Source: Discostella pseudostelligera
Lineage: Eukaryota > Bacillariophyta > Thalassiosirophyceae > Thalassiosirales > Thalassiosiraceae
Assembly (NCBI GenBank): GCA_036940085.1
Contig: JALLBK010000242.1
Location: forward strand, 1 to 25,846
DNA: 25,846 nt
Direction: 5' to 3'
This document shows positions 3,074 through 25,846 of the stretch, piece by piece. The notes beneath the pieces are model-generated. The model saw only the letters and a list, made by a program, of their open reading frames with translations. It was not told the DNA's origin and did not search any database. Position 1 is the first letter of the stretch. Each line of letters begins with the position of its first letter. The position numbers and the translations under genes are program-made.

Positions 3074-6000
3074 ATGGGTCAACTATTCTGCAAGAATTGC
3101 TGCGACGGTAGCGTCGGGGCATTCAGACGTCCCGCCATCATTTCACCCAAGGGAGGAGGCACCACCACCGAAGGTGAAGACTTCAGTAGCTCATGGGATG
3201 ATTCCACCACCTCCCTAAAAAGTTCACCGTCACTTACCAACCTCGATCCCAAACGACATATTCGTATAAAGAATAAAAAGCGCAGTGTGGCCCTTCATGC
3301 GGAATTTCGTGATAGACAGGAACGGGGAGTGCTCATTGCACCACCATTGGTTACCGAACGGGTTATGGAAGATACTGACAATTTATTTATTGGACAAGAT
3401 TTGGGTGTGGACACTTTGCATGATGGATCAATGAGTCGGCGGCCGTCGGAAGCGCTTGATCCGGTGGTTGCTAGCAGGGAGAGTGGGAGTAGTTGGATCG
3501 ATCAACCGAGTGGTGAAGGTGATGAGAAGGGTACAAATGCCGTTGCAGCAACAGAAGTAGCAGTAGAAGGCGATAACAACAACCATTCTCCCGATCGACC
3601 ACGAAAAAAATCCATATCCTTCGATAAAACACCCGAAGAGAATGCCTTCCTCGATCTAGCATTATCCGACGATGACAATTTTGTCTTTGACGGTATGTCC
3701 GATCGATATCGTCAAAAGTTAAAAGACAGTATGGAGCGTGTCCTAGTTCCCAAAAATACGTTCTTAATACGAAAGGGGGATGATCCCGACTATCTCTATC
3801 TCATACTGGAGGGGGAGGTGGCGGTATACATTGATCCCGAGGAATATATTGATGAAAATGCCGTGGAGATTGGAAAGCATGCCTTGTTGGACATATCGGT
3901 GCCCGCGAATACATTGCCACCGAATTCACTCATGCAAACAACTAAATCATCATCGATGAGCTACAATGAGCCTACCAAACGGGAATTTAAGCAATCGTTC
4001 GTATTACAACTACGCAAGAGTCTCTTCCAATCGAGCTACAAGGAGAATGAAGTTCCGACCAACATAGTTGGACAATTTCTTTCGGTAGTGCGGCATAGCC
4101 TACTAGGGGGTGGGGATGAGTCACAAACCTCGATACTTTCTGGTATTATGGAAGAACAAGCATCGACAGGGACGGGTAGCGAAGAAGAGGACTTTGGTGG
4201 TGGTGGTGGTGGTGGCGACTTTTTTATTTCGATGAAGGAGCTACGGGGATTGAAGCATGAACGAGACCTTGGTCCGTGCGATGTCTTTGGGGAGTTGGGT
4301 ACGTGCTCATATATTCATTCACCGCAGTGTTCATGATCCGATGCATCATACTGATTGTCCTATTATTTTTCCTCCAATGATCACTACGGCACACGATACG
4401 AACAGCACTCATTTATAACTGCGCACGAACGGCAACATGTTTTACCACCACGAATTGTATCTTATATCGAGTAGATGGGGAGACATTCCGAAGCATTCTA
4501 TCATCCTCCAATACCGAAAGAGTAAAGAAGAGATGTACCGAAAGTAAGGCGGCGATACTGTCATTGTACAATATCGGTGTAGTGGAAGAGCTGGATGAGA
4601 AGACATTGCTAGACATTGAGACTGTGTTGCATCCGGTGACGTTTGAAGAGGATGATCTTGTCATGTCAAAGGGGGCGTATGACAACATGATGTTCTTCGT
4701 GATGAGTGGGAAGCTGATTGCTCATGATATTGGGGTTGGTGATTCGAGGAAAGCTGACATTGAACTAGGAGAGGGAGGGCATTTTGGAGAGCTCAACATG
4801 TTGACAGGTCTTCCATCCATTGCGAATGTTACGGTTCTTACTCCCAAAGCTAGGTTGATGGCGGTGACCAAAAAGGATTACACAAAGCGGTGCGTGATAT
4901 CGTGCATTGGCTCTTGCATGACACCCCTTTCTTGACAAATACTAATGAACCGCCTTGCATATCGTTTTGCCGTGATGAAGCCGCGATTCACTTGCTCCGT
5001 TGATGAAAAAGTTATGGCTGCGTAACGCCCTACTCACCATCCCTTTGATTGCCAAGTCGAAACTATTACCCCATGAAATCAACCGTCTCGTTCACAAGCT
5101 TGAAAAGATATCGTTCCCAAGGGGCAATGTGTCCTTTGCTGGAAATATGAAATCGGCACTTTTCATTGTAGAGTCAGGGAAAATACAGATAGCAGTGACC
5201 GATGGCGATGGGGTAGTAAACGCATTTGATCAGGTAATGGCATGCGAGCTTGCATTTCAATTGTGCATAGGTTGAGCATTCAATACGACATTAACCTTGG
5301 TCTCTTCCGTTTCTCCTCATAGTACGATCATTTCGGGGAGAAGTCTTTGTTTGATGATAAGTACTTCGAAAGTAAAAGTGTGCAGGTCAGAGCAGTTCAG
5401 CCAACAGAGTGCATGATGCTTAGCCGCAATGCAATAGTCAATGTCATTGGTAGAATTAATCGTCTCGGCAAACCACTGTTGCCCGTCTCAAGGAAGCTTA
5501 TCAAAAATATGAAAATAAGCGACCTCACCCTCCATCGGATTATCGGTATAGGGATGTTCGGCAAAGTTTGGTTAGTGCAGCATAAGAAAACAAATGCTGT
5601 GTATGCATTAAAGGAAATGGATAAGAAGGAGATCATAGAGAAGAAGATGACGAAGGGAGTTACGCGAGAAAAGAATGTCATGTCTTCGGTGGAACATCCG
5701 TTTATATCGAACCTCGTGTCAACATTTCAGGATGTCCACTCGATATTTATGCTCATGGACTACGTTCAGGGGGGCGAGCTATTTGGGCTTATCTACAATG
5801 TTAGTACGAAAGGCTATCTCTCGAATGATGCGGCTGCATTTTATGGTGCCTGCCTAAGTGAGGCGCTAAGTCATCTCCATTCGAGAAATATTTGCCATAG
5901 AGATCTCAAACCAGGTGAGCTCCCTTGTCGTCATTCAATTTATCCAAGTCTACACCGCTATTTCGATGCATTGTCTCACTGCACCCATCGTTTGTGTGTA

Positions 6001-6850
6001 TCTTATCGCACTGCTTTATTACGCTAGAAAATATCCTCATAAATGGTATGTCCTATTTTCTTTATCCTCGACGAAATTCACTCCTCATGAACTCACTAAG
6101 TGTTTGTCTGATTGTCGGTTACAGCTGCTGGGTATGTTGTGCTGGCCGACTTCGGCTTTGCCAAGATCGTGCTTGACAATACATTCACCACCTGTGGCAG
6201 CCCTGAATACATGGGTAAGTTGGATGAAGTGTTGATTTTTGTTGCCGATGAGCTGATAATGCTCACATCCTATTTAGCTCCGGAAATATTACTCGGAAAA
6301 GGCCACTCTTTCAGCGTCGACCACTGGGCACTTGGCGTACTGTTGTACGAAATGCTTGTTGGGCAGACTCCATTCATTCATGTCGGTGCCACTCGAATGA
6401 CTCTCTTTCGCCGGTGAGTAAACTTATAGCAAACAGTTCACTTTTCTCTCTCCTATCGACATCCACGTTGACCTCTCGTCTGTGCCGAATTGTAGGATAT
6501 GCAACAGCACATTTGCATTTCCTAACCCAAAGAAGCATGGGATTGCTGTCAGTGACGCGGCCAAATTACTGATAAAGGGACTTCTGAATAAAAACTGCGG
6601 AGAACGGATCGGTTCCTCCCTCACTCTTGGAGACGAGGAAATTAGCACAAATCCGTGGTTTCAGGGGCTGCTCACAGAGTATCGAGATGCATTCTTGTCG
6701 GAAAAGGTATCTCCTCCGTGGCTACCCGATATCGAAAACGAGCTGGATGCGTCATATTTTGGGTCGCATGATAGTATAGAGAAGGAGGCTCGCTCCCGGA
6801 ACGAAGTCGCTCTGGACAAAAAGGCTCAAAAGTTATTCGAGGGGTTTTGA
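3074..6850 (+). CDS. cGMP-dependent-protein-kinase-like AGC kinase with three cyclic-nucleotide-binding domains, 8 exons
   Basis: Exons 3074-4298, 4406-4889, 4981-5233, 5323-5914, 6028-6045, 6125-6214, 6278-6413 and 6496-6850 join to 1,050 codons. All introns are GT-AG, 63-113 bp. Order: [11 protein letters not shown]-terminus (possible myristoylation/palmitoylation); disordered region to about 200; cNBD-A (about 205-455) with phosphate-binding cassette [16 protein letters not shown] (405-420); cNBD-B with [16 protein letters not shown] (535-550); cNBD-C with [12 protein letters not shown] (658-669); kinase domain from about 725 with GIGMFG (729-734), Lys751, HRDLKPEN (catalytic Asp848), DFG (866-868), likely activation-loop Thr879, SPEYMAPE (883-890), then a C-terminal tail to 1050. 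Only cassette A keeps the conserved Arg (416); B has Ser546 and C lacks it. cNBD-A carries an insertion of about 135 residues with poly-Gly. The kinase core appears complete, so it is probably active. The nucleotide ligand (cGMP, cAMP or other) cannot be read from sequence. Confidence 0.93.
6028..6045 (+). other. 18-nt micro-exon of the kinase gene
   Basis: A short exon between CTAG (6024-6027) and GGTATG (donor 6046). It supplies the residues ENILIN after HRDLKP and before [11 protein letters not shown]. Without it the catalytic loop would lack the Asn that binds metal in all active protein kinases. Phase 1 on both sides, so skipping would keep frame but lose the metal-binding Asn853. Confidence 0.88.
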
Positions 6851-20714: not shown

Positions 20715-23420
20715 TCATCCACTAAGTGATGCTCTCCCTCCATCTTCACACAAATTCAAACTCGCCTTATCAATGCTAGCTGGACTTCCACTCCTTCGAC
20801 TACCTCTACTCAAACTACCACCGGATCCGGAACCGGAACCGGAACTGCTATTCTGACTACTACCGGCGTACCCTCCCTTACTGTGAGTGTTGCTACTTAC
20901 GCTCATCATGTCCATACCTCCTAGCAATATACTGGATGCACCCATGAAGCTCTCATCATCAATGTTACCGGCGTAACCCTGTCCCTCTTTACTATGCATA
21001 CCCACACTGCCCACACTAAAATCCATAATTGCACTGGATACACCAATCAAGCTTTCACTATCACCGTACAGAGAAGAAGATTGTGGATTATTCATACTGT
21101 CCCTGCTCTCCTGGTGTGCATGCGACTCCGGATGATGATGCAATCCCAACCCACTTTGTGGTGAATAGTTACTACTACTCGTAGCACCCGAGGGATGACT
21201 TCCCACACTCACAGTCATATCCATCAAGGTGGCACCCACGCCTGCACTACTATTGTCTTCATGATCATCAAATACATGACACAACGATGCTCCGCCTATA
21301 CTCCCACCCATTGTGGATACATTCTCTGTACCGCACAAGCTCATTTTATCCAAGTCGAGACTAAACACTGGACTGGTGGGTGTCGAATCCAATGGATGAG
21401 TTCTTCCGTACATTGATCCTGCTGGTGGAGGTGGTGGTGCTGTCGTACATGGCATAGCTGCGCGATATAGGCCAGAGCTTGACCTGCGCAATGGCGATGT
21501 TAACATGACGCCACAGGGTAAGGTCGGAGCAAGTGGAGGTGACGATCGAGGCGTAGTGCCACCCATTGCTGCACCTACTTCCACAGCGGATCCTAACGTG
21601 GATAGGTCCAGCTGTACCTTTCCCGAATTGGACGGAGCGTGTGTGCCAGTATGTCGTTTGCGTCGACCAGAGCCACTGCCGCTTCGAGTACTATCGCCAC
21701 GCATTATATGATGTCGTGGTGGTGTGGAGCGACTGTACGATGGTATACCTCCATGATGATGATGTCGTGTAAGATGGGCATGAGTTGTTGGTGGTGGAAC
21801 CTCCTGACTACGCTGCTGATATTGTTGTTGTTGCTGCTGTTGTAGCTGCTGCTGCTCCTCATAATACAAGGGAGCATGCGCCACCAACTCCACCTCCTGT
21901 CCAACATCCCCCGATATTTCATCCTCTAATTCCTTCAAATAGTAATTTAAGCTGTCCGATGTCTTTACTGAAAAGTCACCCGATAGGAATGCTAGGGGTG
22001 TGGCTTGGGAGAGGTAAGTGGTGTGACTTATTACTGAACCGGTGTTGTTGTTGCTGTTGTTGTTGGTGGGTGATGGTGGTGAGGATGTTACATCGTGTCC
22101 TGGAATGGTGGTTGCGATGGAATTTGGCAACGTGGTTGCAGCTGAGGAGGAAGTAGTTCCCGAAGAAACACTGGAATGAATACTACTCGAAGGATGCTGT
22201 TGCTGATGATTCCTAGTCATTGAGTTAATGACCAATGGAATATCATTGACATTGCTACTACTCCCAGTGCCTCTGTGTGATGGATGGTGCATTGTATCAT
22301 TGTGGAATTGCACATGTTTATCGCTCGGTGAGCTATCTCGTGAGCTTGACAGGGAGGACCGTCGCATATTGGTTGTGGTTGTTGAGGATGGAGCTGGTCC
22401 TGCAAGCGGTATTGTAGTGATGTTGGAGGTGGTGGCGGTTGGAGGAGGACCCATGATGTTGGAATGATGATGCTCACCGTGCATTGCTGGAACTGGTGGA
22501 GGATTGATAGTAGACTGAAATCCCAATGTCGATGGATGCATTGCTGGAGAAGGTGTTGTATTGTGCGATAATTCTCTTGAAGGGAGCATAATTGGTTGTG
22601 AATGGTGTTGTTGCTGTGGATGCGATTGCAGGTTTGGAATGTATTCTGGATATTGAGAGTGTGGCGGTGGTCCTCTGTAGAACGGTGCAGCCACATGCTG
22701 CTGTTGCTGTTGCTGCTGATCTAGTGGTAGCTGTTGCATTCCCCCAGTTGGATGCAGAGCCGATGACGAGAATGAGTACGGATAATGAAGTGGGGGTGGT
22801 TGATGAGATTGACCGGCACCATGATGATGATGATGATGATGATGATGATGCGCAGGATGGGAAATTTGCAGTGGTGGGGGATGAAATCCCCATGAAGCCT
22901 GAGGCAATGCCGACTGTTGTTGTTGCTGCTGTTGCTGCTGAATGTGTCCACCAAACCCATTAGTAGTAGAAGTAGCAGCAGGTTTGGAGTCATCCCCCGC
23001 ACTCAAAGGCACATCTGACTCCTCTCCACCTCCCTCCTCTTGCATCTCCAGCCGTCGTTTCTCTAATATTTCTACCTCCATCTCCTTCCGTACATTCGAT
23101 GCATTCTCTCTCAATGCCTGGGAGGTTTTATCCCTTGCCTTTTCGTCTCCAATCTCATGCCATACATTATTCTTTATTGGGTCTTTGATTAGAAATCGTC
23201 CTGGTGGATCCATACTGCGTATTTCCTGTACGATGGAGGAGGCAATTAGTCGCTTTTCACGTTTGAATCGAGCAGTTAGATAGATTCGCTTTTTGCGTTC
23301 CACAATTTCACGGTATTGTTCATTGCCAGGATGGGAGTTGACGACACCTCCACGGCCGCAGAGGACATCGTTGTTGTGTGGATTCGTGATGTTGGTGGTG
23401 GGTTGCTCGTTGGAGGGCAT
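20715..23420 (-). CDS. DUF6824-domain protein with poly-Gln and poly-His tracts
   Basis: One 901-codon exon. The N-terminal domain (about residues 15-110) has NDVLCGRGGVVNSHPGN, YLTARFKREKRLIASSIVQE, PPGRFLIKD, WHEIGDEKARDKTSQALRE; this is the pattern of DUF6824, a domain abundant in diatoms and other stramenopiles with unknown biochemical role. A short charged helix follows (NVRKEMEVEILEKRRLEMQ). The remaining ~770 residues are low complexity: Gln runs near 161-169 and 237-243, a His10 run at about 191-200 encoded by a pure ATG/CAT triplet array, further Gln runs near 525-540, many Ser/Pro/Thr stretches and a C-terminal (Gly-Ser)n segment. The composition suggests a disordered nuclear regulator, which is inference. 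No intron is needed. Confidence 0.9.
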   Translation of the reverse strand: MPSNEQPTTNITNPHNNDVLCGRGGVVNSHPGNEQYREIVERKKRIYLTARFKREKRLIASSIVQEIRSMDPPGRFLIKDPIKNNVWHEIGDEKARDKTSQALRENASNVRKEMEVEILEKRRLEMQEEGGGEESDVPLSAGDDSKPAATSTTNGFGGHIQQQQQQQQQSALPQASWGFHPPPLQISHPAHHHHHHHHHHGAGQSHQPPPLHYPYSFSSSALHPTGGMQQLPLDQQQQQQQHVAAPFYRGPPPHSQYPEYIPNLQSHPQQQHHSQPIMLPSRELSHNTTPSPAMHPSTLGFQSTINPPPVPAMHGEHHHSNIMGPPPTATTSNITTIPLAGPAPSSTTTTNMRRSSLSSSRDSSPSDKHVQFHNDTMHHPSHRGTGSSSNVNDIPLVINSMTRNHQQQHPSSSIHSSVSSGTTSSSAATTLPNSIATTIPGHDVTSSPPSPTNNNSNNNTGSVISHTTYLSQATPLAFLSGDFSVKTSDSLNYYLKELEDEISGDVGQEVELVAHAPLYYEEQQQLQQQQQQQYQQRSQEVPPPTTHAHLTRHHHHGGIPSYSRSTPPRHHIMRGDSTRSGSGSGRRKRHTGTHAPSNSGKVQLDLSTLGSAVEVGAAMGGTTPRSSPPLAPTLPCGVMLTSPLRRSSSGLYRAAMPCTTAPPPPPAGSMYGRTHPLDSTPTSPVFSLDLDKMSLCGTENVSTMGGSIGGASLCHVFDDHEDNSSAGVGATLMDMTVSVGSHPSGATSSSNYSPQSGLGLHHHPESHAHQESRDSMNNPQSSSLYGDSESLIGVSSAIMDFSVGSVGMHSKEGQGYAGNIDDESFMGASSILLGGMDMMSVSSNTHSKGGYAGSSQNSSSGSGSGSGGSLSRGSRRSGSPASIDKASLNLCEDGGRASLSG
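22819..22850. repeat. (ATG)n/(CAT)n microsatellite encoding poly-His
   Basis: Ten uninterrupted triplets inside the DUF6824 coding sequence. Because the codons are identical, slippage can change the number of His residues without shifting frame. Confidence 0.9.
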
Positions 23421-24150: not shown

Positions 24151-25132
24151 ATGATCAACACTAAGGTTTTAGTCGCTGTCCTTGCAGTCGTTGCGTGTGC
24201 TTCCGCCGATGGAACTACCAAGATCCGCAGGAAGAGAGCATTGCGTCATCGAGCCGGGGTGTCAGCAGCGGCGGCAACCAATGATCTTACCGAAGATGTT
24301 GCATTTTGGACGCGATCGTTGCAGGCGTCCCTTCCACCAGTGCCACCGCCCACAGAAGGAGGGTGAGTTTCCCCATCTGAGCTTTACATGGATGCTTTTA
24401 CTAAGATGTGAAACATCATTCTCCTGACCCGCATTCAATCAAAAACAGGTCGCCTATTCCAAGTCCTACGGGAAGTGGTGTCGTTTCTGGCCCACCCGTC
24501 GCGTGAGTGGTTTTAATGGTCGAATGTCGAATAAGAACGCCGATATTTCTGACACCCTGAATCGCGCCCATTCATTTTAACAGGTCGCCTATCCCAAGTC
24601 CTACGGGAAGTAGTGAGGTTTCTGGCCCACCCGTCGCGTGAGTATTACTTTGGTGGTCGAGTATCGAATAGAGAAACAACCCAATATTTCCTGACGCCCT
24701 AAATCACACCCATTAATTTTTAACAGGTCGCCTATCCCAAGTCCTACGGGAAGTGGTGTCGTTTCTGGCCCACCCGTCACACTATTCCCAACCCCTGATT
24801 CCTCCGTTGCCGGCACAGCTTCAAAGGCTTCCGAACCACCCGTTTCACCCAACCTGCCCGTGGCGCAGGACGACGCCGAAACAGTCAGTGCCGCCGATGG
24901 AGTATCTTTCATTGATGTCCTCGTGAATGATACTTCCAGTACGGATCAGACTCTTACTGTCAAATCCATTACATCAAATGCGAGCAATGGAGATTGTTCC
25001 ATTGGGCTTGATTTACTCACAGTGGTGTACGTTCCCAATGAAGGGTTCGCTGGTACTGATAGCTGTGAATATGAAGCTTGTGATCTTGTGCCAAATTGCG
25101 TTACGGCAACTGTGACAATTACAGTGAATTAG
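24151..25132 (+). CDS. Secreted Ser/Pro-repeat protein with Ig/cadherin-like C-terminal domain, 4 exons
   Basis: Exons 24151-24362, 24449-24502, 24584-24637 and 24727-25132 give 241 codons plus stop. Residues 1-19 form a signal peptide ([14 protein letters not shown], likely cut before Asp20). RRKR at 26-29 followed by AL is a possible dibasic or RXL processing site. Exons 2, 3 and the start of exon 4 code three near-identical 18-residue units, [18 protein letters not shown], with variants SSEV in unit 2. The C-terminal ~95 residues ([45 protein letters not shown]) match the bacterial-type Ig/cadherin-like tandem domain (Big_9-like), with four Cys that could pair. Role is probably extracellular or wall-associated (inference). 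The Ser/Pro units look like O-glycosylated spacers. All introns are phase 2. Confidence 0.85.
24449..24780 (+). repeat. Tandem triplication of a 54-nt exon with its intron
   Basis: Units start at 24449, 24584 and 24727 (periods 135 and 143 bp). Each exon starts GTCGCCTAT and ends CCCACCCGTCRC; copies differ by 2-5 bases in 54. The two intervening introns (81 and 89 bp) are also related (GGTCGARTRTCGAATA, ATATTTC-TGAC-CCCT, CCCATTMATTTTTAACAG) but more diverged. In the third copy the donor CGC|GTGAGT is changed to CAC|ACTATT, so it reads through into the final domain. Confidence 0.93.
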
Positions 25133-25597
25133 GAAAGATAGTCGTGTTTAGGGTCATGCTGCAGGGACTTGCTTCGTTTGACAAGTTGTTTCGTCCTTGC
25201 TATGTCCCGGATAGAGTGGAGATTAGAGTTTATTTCATATATGTCTGAGATGGCAATCGTTAGGTACCAGTTTTAGAAAAGACAAATACTAAGACGAGTA
25301 CATTATTGTTTGCATCATGAATATGAAGCGAGATAAATTCAGTAACCACAGTGATGACACGTTCGTAAGGTAGAGGTAAAACGTGGAGCACCTGGCACCT
25401 GCCACCTGCCACCTGCCACGTGAAAGATAGTCGAGTCCGCGCGCCAGAGTCACCGGTCGACGGACAGAGAGGATGCAGAGTGAGGTACTTGCGCGGCGAT
25501 TCTTCCCGCCATTTTTATCCACCGCCACCAAGCAAGCAAAGAGAAGCAAAGCAACACCTGCACCATGCACCATGCACCGTCACCATCACCATGAACC
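25133..25597. promoter_or_regulatory. Intergenic region with E-box array and E2F-like site
   Basis: 3' flank of the secreted-protein gene and promoter of the next gene. Contains the 7-bp-period E-box array at 25389-25422 (own entry), a reversed E2F-like site in TTCCCGCCATTTTTATCC at 25503-25520, and CACCATGCACCATGCACC just before the start, which carries several upstream ATGs in other frames. 25133-25380 is A/T-rich with nothing else recognised. Confidence 0.5.
25389..25422. promoter_or_regulatory. E-box array: four CACCTG then one CACGTG at 7-bp period
   Basis: CACCTG at 25389, 25396, 25403 and 25410, then CACGTG at 25417, each exactly 7 bp after the last. It lies 176 bp upstream of the next start codon. 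E-boxes are bHLH or zinc-finger sites by general knowledge. A plain 7-bp tandem repeat with one changed base is the alternative. Confidence 0.65.
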
Positions 25598-25846
25598 ATG
25601 AACTATGCCGAAGATCGACTTGATCGACGTGCGACGGCAAAGGTAGATAGTAGCTCTCATGATCAGCTTGAGTACGATTTGAAGCGAGCGCACTCCGTCT
25701 TGAATGAGTATGCGTGTCGTCGTCATCACGGGGGCGACACACTGCTGTCGTCACATACCGACGACGACGACGTCGATGAGGCATCACCATTCATTAGTCC
25801 ATCGCTTCGTGAATTACGAGCAGCACACGAATTAGCGGGGAAGACT
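25598..25846 (+). CDS. 5' part of an unrecognised protein gene (runs off the window)
   Basis: An open frame from ATG at 25598 continues to the last base, 83 codons, with an in-frame TGA at 25592-25594 directly upstream, so 25598 is the first possible start in this frame. The protein begins MNYAEDRLDRRATAKVDSSS and holds an acidic run (HTDDDDVDEAS) followed by a charged helical stretch (SPSLRELRAAHELAGKT). No family is recognised. An E2F-like site and an E-box array lie in its promoter. The next ATGs upstream (25591, 25572, 25565) open only short frames. Confidence 0.6.
   Translation, partial: MNYAEDRLDRRATAKVDSSSHDQLEYDLKRAHSVLNEYACRRHHGGDTLLSSHTDDDDVDEASPFISPSLRELRAAHELAGKT

What the first reader, a model, noticed from the sequence alone, without database searches (positions are those of the whole stretch)
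24449..24780. Tandem exon-plus-intron triplication with loss of the last donor
Three copies of a symmetric phase-2 54-nt exon are separated by homologous introns. Exons are 91-96% alike while introns are visibly more diverged, suggesting constraint or gene conversion on the coding units. In copy 3 the donor is mutated, which fused the unit to the domain exon. The number of Ser/Pro spacers can change by exon skipping, or by unequal crossing-over, without changing frame.
Basis: seen in the sequence. Interest (0 to 1): 0.75.

Follow-up and report, generated by a model that had tools for sequence, protein, structure and literature searches.

The report
Tripled exon-intron unit in diatom gene
A diatom gene for a probably secreted protein carries the same small exon three times, so the protein's flexible stalk could be lengthened or shortened without breaking the code; it is a neat but fairly ordinary case of exon duplication.

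Summary
A 54-nt phase-2 exon occurs three times (24449-24502, 24584-24637, 24727-24780); pairs match at 50, 52 and 50 of 54 positions. The two introns between copies are homologous (68 of 81 aligned positions, 8 gap columns); the intron before copy 1 is not detectably related. The gene (24151-25132, 241 aa) encodes a putative signal peptide, an [11 protein letters not shown] segment, a Ser/Pro/Thr linker made largely of the units, and a Big_9 Ig-like domain. Its named closest relatives are Thalassiosirales diatoms.

One correction. Copy 3 shows no sign of a donor lost by mutation: the sequence after it has no trace of the homologous intron. A close relative (P0002) has an intron-1-like tail running straight into ONE unit already fused to the domain. 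So the fused unit is probably old, units 1 and 2 are the added ones, and unit number seems to differ between near relatives. Exon constraint is not supported: 3 of the 4 codons that differ change the residue. Splicing is inferred, not seen; P0002's DNA was out of reach. A new instance of a known kind, of low to moderate interest.

The parts
24151..24362 (+). Exon 1: putative signal peptide (by eye), basic stretch, [12 protein letters not shown] segment, start of linker; ends in phase 2
   Evidence: Open frame; matched at 100% over 29% of the 241-aa query by an ORF of another assembly (P0061); N-terminus conserved in relatives
24363..24448 (+). Intron 1 (86 nt, GTGAGT...AACAG); not detectably homologous to introns 2 and 3
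   Evidence: its 3' tail recurs in relative P0002 as VKHHSPDAHSIKN
24449..24502 (+). Unit 1: 54-nt symmetric exon, (G)[17 protein letters not shown](A)
24503..24583 (+). Intron 2 (81 nt), homologous to intron 3
   Evidence: only itself found in a genome search
24584..24637 (+). Unit 2: 54-nt symmetric exon, [17 protein letters not shown](A)
24638..24726 (+). Intron 3 (89 nt), homologous to intron 2
   Evidence: only itself found in a genome search
24727..24780 (+). Unit 3: [17 protein letters not shown] fused to the domain exon; no donor at its 3' end
   Evidence: same fusion in P0002
24781..25132 (+). Rest of last exon: remaining linker (TLFPTPDSS...), Big_9 Ig-like domain, stop TAG
   Evidence: Pfam Big_9 E 1.2e-12 at residues 150-239; open frame 24695-25132

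Best explanation
This is a coding tandem array whose repeat unit is a whole symmetric exon plus its following intron (periods 135 and 143 bp). It lies in the Ser/Pro/Thr linker, probably disordered, of a small and probably secreted diatom protein, between a conserved N-terminal segment ([12 protein letters not shown], perhaps a pro-region cut at its RXL site) and one Big_9 Ig-like domain. The underlying gene is exon 1 - intron 1 - linker-plus-domain exon, with the linker unit already fused to the domain; units 1 and 2 with introns 2 and 3 are additions in front of it. Each unit is 54 nt in phase 2 and each intron is removed whole, so unequal crossing-over or slippage adds or removes 18 residues of stalk without touching frame or domain. 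Shown: the array, its frame logic, the relation of introns 2 and 3, and a near relative whose predicted protein has a single fused unit. Inferred: that the introns are spliced, the direction of change, stalk length as the trait that varies, and secretion. Not shown: exon skipping in vivo.
For: Array and frame. Intron 2/3 homology and lack of it for intron 1. No intron remnant after unit 3. Single fused unit in P0002, read from an intron-1-like tail that differs from the window's at 1 of 13 codons. Window against P0002 from the unit to the end: 11 of 134 residues differ, 10 of them in the first 54, so the linker is the fast part. Linkers of relatives are also Ser/Pro/Thr-rich and repetitive but of other sequence and length. 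In Conticribra weissflogii two sequences of this kind (P0037, P0041) differ in number of in-frame linker repeats, 5 and 7 by eye. Introns of this length and donor type occur elsewhere in the window: two introns of a kinase-like gene, 6215-6277 and 6414-6495, are 63 and 82 nt.
Against: No transcript or read data. Introns 2 and 3 differ more (13 of 81) than the intron-1 tail does between window and P0002, which suggests the array is older than that split (P 0.03 for at most one change if all introns evolve at the intron 2/3 divergence; 0.04 at 0.15 and 0.17 at 0.10), so that P0002 would have lost units instead of never having them. Where introns 2 and 3 came from is unexplained, because they do not resemble intron 1.
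Confidence: 0.72

Rival explanations
1. One reading: three complete exon-intron units; the donor of copy 3 mutated, fusing it to the domain exon.
For: Copy 3 parts from copies 1 and 2 at the donor position.
Against: A lost donor leaves the intron in the transcript; nothing in 24779-24900 resembles introns 2 or 3, and the sequence there reads on as linker also seen in P0002 (TLFPTPGSS).
Confidence: 0.05
2. Precise loss of a former intron between unit 3 and the domain exon (for example via a cDNA intermediate), so the fused unit is the derived state.
For: P0029 (87% identical over 75% of the 145-aa query) reads MKSCIKTR-TLAPSS..., which can be an intron tail joined directly to the residues that follow unit 3; the repeat ends within 2 nt of the donor position.
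Against: That tail resembles intron 1 (HSIKNR / KSCIKTR) more than introns 2 and 3, so P0029 may simply have no unit; only a few residues bear on this.
Confidence: 0.17
3. Introns 2 and 3 are mobile (introner-like) insertions into an in-exon Ser/Pro repeat.
For: They are unrelated to intron 1 and interrupt a repeat of a kind that relatives carry within one frame (P0004, P0037, P0041, L017).
Against: Only self matches in the 23-Mb assembly at E up to 10, though that search skips very common words and could miss an abundant family; one duplication of exon plus intron explains their similarity.
Confidence: 0.08
4. Assembly artefact.
For: Repeat in a draft assembly of 963 contigs.
Against: The three copies follow three distinct introns, so false joining would have to invent distinct sequence.
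Confidence: 0.03

Closest known systems
Tandem exon duplication in eukaryotic genes (PMC9013439: abstract and Introduction read; it cites a 2002 study finding about 10% of animal genes with tandemly duplicated exons)
   Same: Neighbouring homologous exons with their introns inside one gene, here symmetric so that number can vary
   Different: Here in a diatom, in a linker, three copies of 54 nt, with the last copy fused to the next domain; no evidence of mutually exclusive choice
Internal tandem repeats that change gene structure (De Grassi and Ciccarelli 2009, PMC2812944: outline with headings and one-line abstract seen)
   Same: A repeat array inside a gene changes its structure between close relatives
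   Different: Human paralogues in segmental duplications there; here each repeat carries its own splice sites
54-bp exons of fibrillar collagen genes (recalled; one search listed a single paper, on bone-related variation, not read)
   Same: Short symmetric exons of 54 bp encoding an extended Pro-rich segment
   Different: No Gly-X-Y repeat, three copies only, no homology implied
Thalassiosirales Big_9 proteins with Ser/Pro/Thr linker (P0014 T. pseudonana, P0012 T. exigua, P0007 Cyclostephanos tholiformis, P0037 and P0041 Conticribra weissflogii)
   Same: Same N-terminal segment, linker and domain order (the partial model P0041 starts at the linker)
   Different: Linker repeats differ in sequence; in C. 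weissflogii they read through in one frame (P0041), with no spliced unit in view

Membership tests
Tandem exon duplication | Two or more adjacent homologous exons with homologous flanking intron | tested here: met
   Units 50-52 of 54 identical; introns 2/3 homologous, 0 of 2000 shuffles as high
Tandem exon duplication | Exons used in mature mRNA | not testable with these tools
   No transcripts; only frame and splice-site logic
Mutually exclusive exon cluster | Only one exon of the set included per transcript | not testable with these tools
   All four inclusion patterns of units 1 and 2 keep frame, so frame does not force exclusivity
Big_9 (PF17963) domain protein | Profile match above curated cut-off | tested here: met
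   48.9 bits against cut-off 23.6
Introner elements | Many near-identical introns across the genome | tested here: inconclusive
   Only self matches for introns 2 and 3, but the search skips very common words and scores only best candidates
Frustule-associated diatom proteins with RXL processing | N-terminal signal peptide followed by RXL | tested here: inconclusive
   RSL present; RXL in 18 of the 20 rows with an [12 protein letters not shown] motif other than P0001, a piece of the window protein (21 rows among 84 sequences; P0013 and P0037 lack it). Rows include near-duplicates and were gathered by similarity. Signal peptide judged by eye; cleavage and location untested

The most novel reading that the evidence does not exclude
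A spliceable minisatellite: a repeat whose unit is a complete exon plus intron, kept in register by conversion of the exon part while introns drift, giving a surface protein whose stalk length is tuned both by heritable copy-number change among strains and by exon skipping within a cell.
Probability: 0.15. Interest if true: 0.5.

Novelty: new member of a known kind. Interest (0 to 1): 0.3.

Why it matters
It is a small, clean case in a diatom where relatives with apparently one and three units can be compared, so the origin of a new exon-intron pair and the change of a linker's length could be dated directly. If strains prove polymorphic, it would be a handy marker of recombination in a planktonic alga and a test of whether stalk length matters for an Ig-like protein at the cell surface.

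Tried and rejected
Donor mutation in copy 3: rejected as stated, no intron remnant downstream. Homology of intron 1 with introns 2 and 3, which a simple intron-plus-exon duplication would need: not detected, whole or by halves. Mobile introns: only self matches in the genome, with the limits of that search. Whole-array search of the genome: only itself. A second close gene copy: the domain search gave 9 matches, the other 8 at 30-47% identity. Exon constraint: not supported by the kinds of change. A first estimate of 113 nt for the kinase-like gene's intron near 5915 did not hold: a recheck gave four other candidates of 177-210 nt, so that intron is left out. Literature: 'tandem exon duplication' with 'diatom' gave 0 papers, which shows only that this pair of terms is absent from that library. 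Other searches: 6 of 6 papers listed, 15 of 42 (26), 10 of 381 (39), 10 of 75 (40), 1 of 1 (44), 8 of 12 (45), 8 of 29 (46); I saw no closer precedent in these listings. Papers: PMC9013439 abstract and Introduction; PMC2812944 outline with one-line abstract; PMC9650480, PMC5501833, PMC5859163 and PMC4557024 passages only; all others search listings only. No structure was predicted.

Full report
What is there. The gene runs from 24151 to 25132 on the + strand. Four exons splice to a 726-nt frame encoding 241 residues. Exon 1 (212 nt) ends in phase 2. Three copies of a 54-nt exon follow at 24449, 24584 and 24727; the third continues without interruption to the stop codon. The introns are 86, 81 and 89 nt, all with a GTGAGT donor and an AACAG acceptor. 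Each intron kept in brings a stop; each combination of units 1 and 2 dropped keeps the frame. Two introns worked out for a kinase-like gene in the same window are 63 and 82 nt with GTAAGT and GTGAGT donors (the junctions were picked by recalled kinase motifs), so the proposed introns look normal for this genome. A third candidate in that gene could not be settled (113 nt, 177-210 nt) and is left out.

How alike the copies are. Units 1/2, 1/3 and 2/3 match at 50, 52 and 50 of 54 positions. Introns 2 and 3 match at 68 of 81 aligned positions with 8 gap columns, and none of 2000 shuffles with fixed splice ends scores as high; intron 1 against introns 2 and 3 is at noise level (583 and 572 of 2000). 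Of the four codons that differ among units, one change is synonymous and three change the residue (G/S, V/E, and A/T at the end), so purifying constraint is not the explanation. Recent duplication with indel-prone introns, or conversion between units 1 and 3, fits better; neither is proven.

The protein. Residues 150-239 match Big_9 (E 1.2e-12). The N-terminus looks like a signal peptide (by eye) followed by a basic stretch and [12 protein letters not shown]. Relatives with this N-terminus, a Ser/Pro/Thr-rich linker and one Big_9 domain come from Thalassiosira pseudonana, T. exigua, Cyclostephanos tholiformis and Conticribra weissflogii as well as from metagenomes; taxonomy places the three of these four that I looked up in Thalassiosirales. 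More distant hits of the profile search include bacterial Big_9 proteins. The window's genome (23.0 Mb in 963 contigs) is therefore most likely a centric diatom's. RXL is present in 18 of 20 rows with an [12 protein letters not shown] motif other than a piece of the window protein; these proteins were gathered by similarity and include near-duplicates, so this is not independent evidence. RXL is described as a likely endopeptidase site in silica-associated diatom precursors (passages in PMC4557024, PMC5501833, PMC9650480). Calling this a frustule protein would go beyond the evidence.

Polarity. P0002, a metagenomic predicted protein standing for 7 members, reads [38 protein letters not shown].... 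The window reads [24 protein letters not shown]... across the end of intron 1 into unit 1 (24405-24506). So in P0002 the intron-1-like tail is followed by one unit that is already fused to the domain, as unit 3 is in the window. From the unit to the end, 11 of 134 residues differ. The simplest reading is that the fused unit belongs to the basic gene and the window's units 1 and 2 are additional, or that P0002 has contracted. Introns 2 and 3 differ at 13 of 81 positions, whereas about 31 amino-acid-changing sites of the intron-1 tail show one change between window and P0002; at equal rates this has P 0.03 (0.04 at 15% and 0.17 at 10% divergence), which leans towards an array older than the split and a contraction in P0002. 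This is weak, since an intron tail can be constrained.

Loss of the last donor. If the donor of copy 3 had simply mutated, intron sequence would remain after it. The stretch 24779-24900 has no similarity to intron 2 or 3 (469 and 910 of 1000 shuffles reach the scores), and it reads as linker shared with P0002. A precise intron loss cannot be excluded: P0029 reads MKSCIKTR-TLAPSS, which may be an intron tail directly before the residues that follow unit 3. Its tail is closer to intron 1, which would make P0029 a relative without any unit. A handful of residues cannot decide this.

Elsewhere in the family. In Conticribra weissflogii the gene model P0041 starts with what looks like an intron tail and enters the linker (KPTSV...) at a place that corresponds to intron 1, with its repeats in one frame. 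P0037, whose label carries the taxid of the same species and an MMETSP code (a transcriptome project, recalled), has the same linker with 5 repeats instead of 7, counted by eye. Whether these are strains or paralogues is not known. In the window's own genome a paralogue (L017) has the same N-terminal motif, a linker with in-frame repeats of about 15 residues, and leucine-rich repeats in the next ORF instead of Big_9. Variable repeats in this linker thus look common; packaging them as spliced exons is the special feature of this locus.

Mechanism and standing. The best account is a coding tandem repeat with an exon-plus-intron unit, whose number can change without harm to frame or domain. Copy-number change is supported by P0002; exon skipping is possible (it is reported in the diatom Phaeodactylum tricornutum, passages of PMC5859163) but untested here. 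Tandem exon duplication is widespread in animals (PMC9013439 Introduction). A search for 'tandem exon duplication' with 'diatom' found no paper, which says little. The finding is real, correctly located and modestly interesting.

Noticed in passing
L017 (G000:C383, about 24996-25157 and downstream): Own-genome paralogue: EDVSFWTRSLQSSLPP N-terminus, in-frame tandem Pro/Thr repeats, then an ORF with leucine-rich repeats; suggests a modular diatom family with a shared N-terminal segment, variable linker and swapped recognition domain.
   Followed up: partly
G000:C89, C876, C183 (L003-L010): Other Big_9-like loci in the same genome, 30-47% identical to this domain, including a 545-aa ORF with long Pro/His/Trp-rich repeats.
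   Followed up: partly
P0004, P0008, P0012, P0014 (proteins of relatives): Linkers made of short repeats (ATPQPTDQV, TPRPP, ATPNPTDP, TPQPTD..), different between these proteins: rapid turnover of linker sequence.
   Followed up: partly
P0037 and P0041 (Conticribra weissflogii): Two sequences of one species with 5 and 7 linker repeats by eye; strains or paralogues not told apart.
   Followed up: no
window 20715-23420, - strand: 901-aa ORF with long Gln and His runs; trinucleotide-type repeats were found in the same stretch.
   Followed up: no
window 25389-25419 and 25555-25608: Two short 7-bp tandem repeats (CACCTGC, CACCATG) downstream of the gene.
   Followed up: no
window 6215-6495: Kinase-like gene with introns of 63 and 82 nt worked out from recalled kinase motifs; a further intron from about 5915 is unresolved.
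   Followed up: partly
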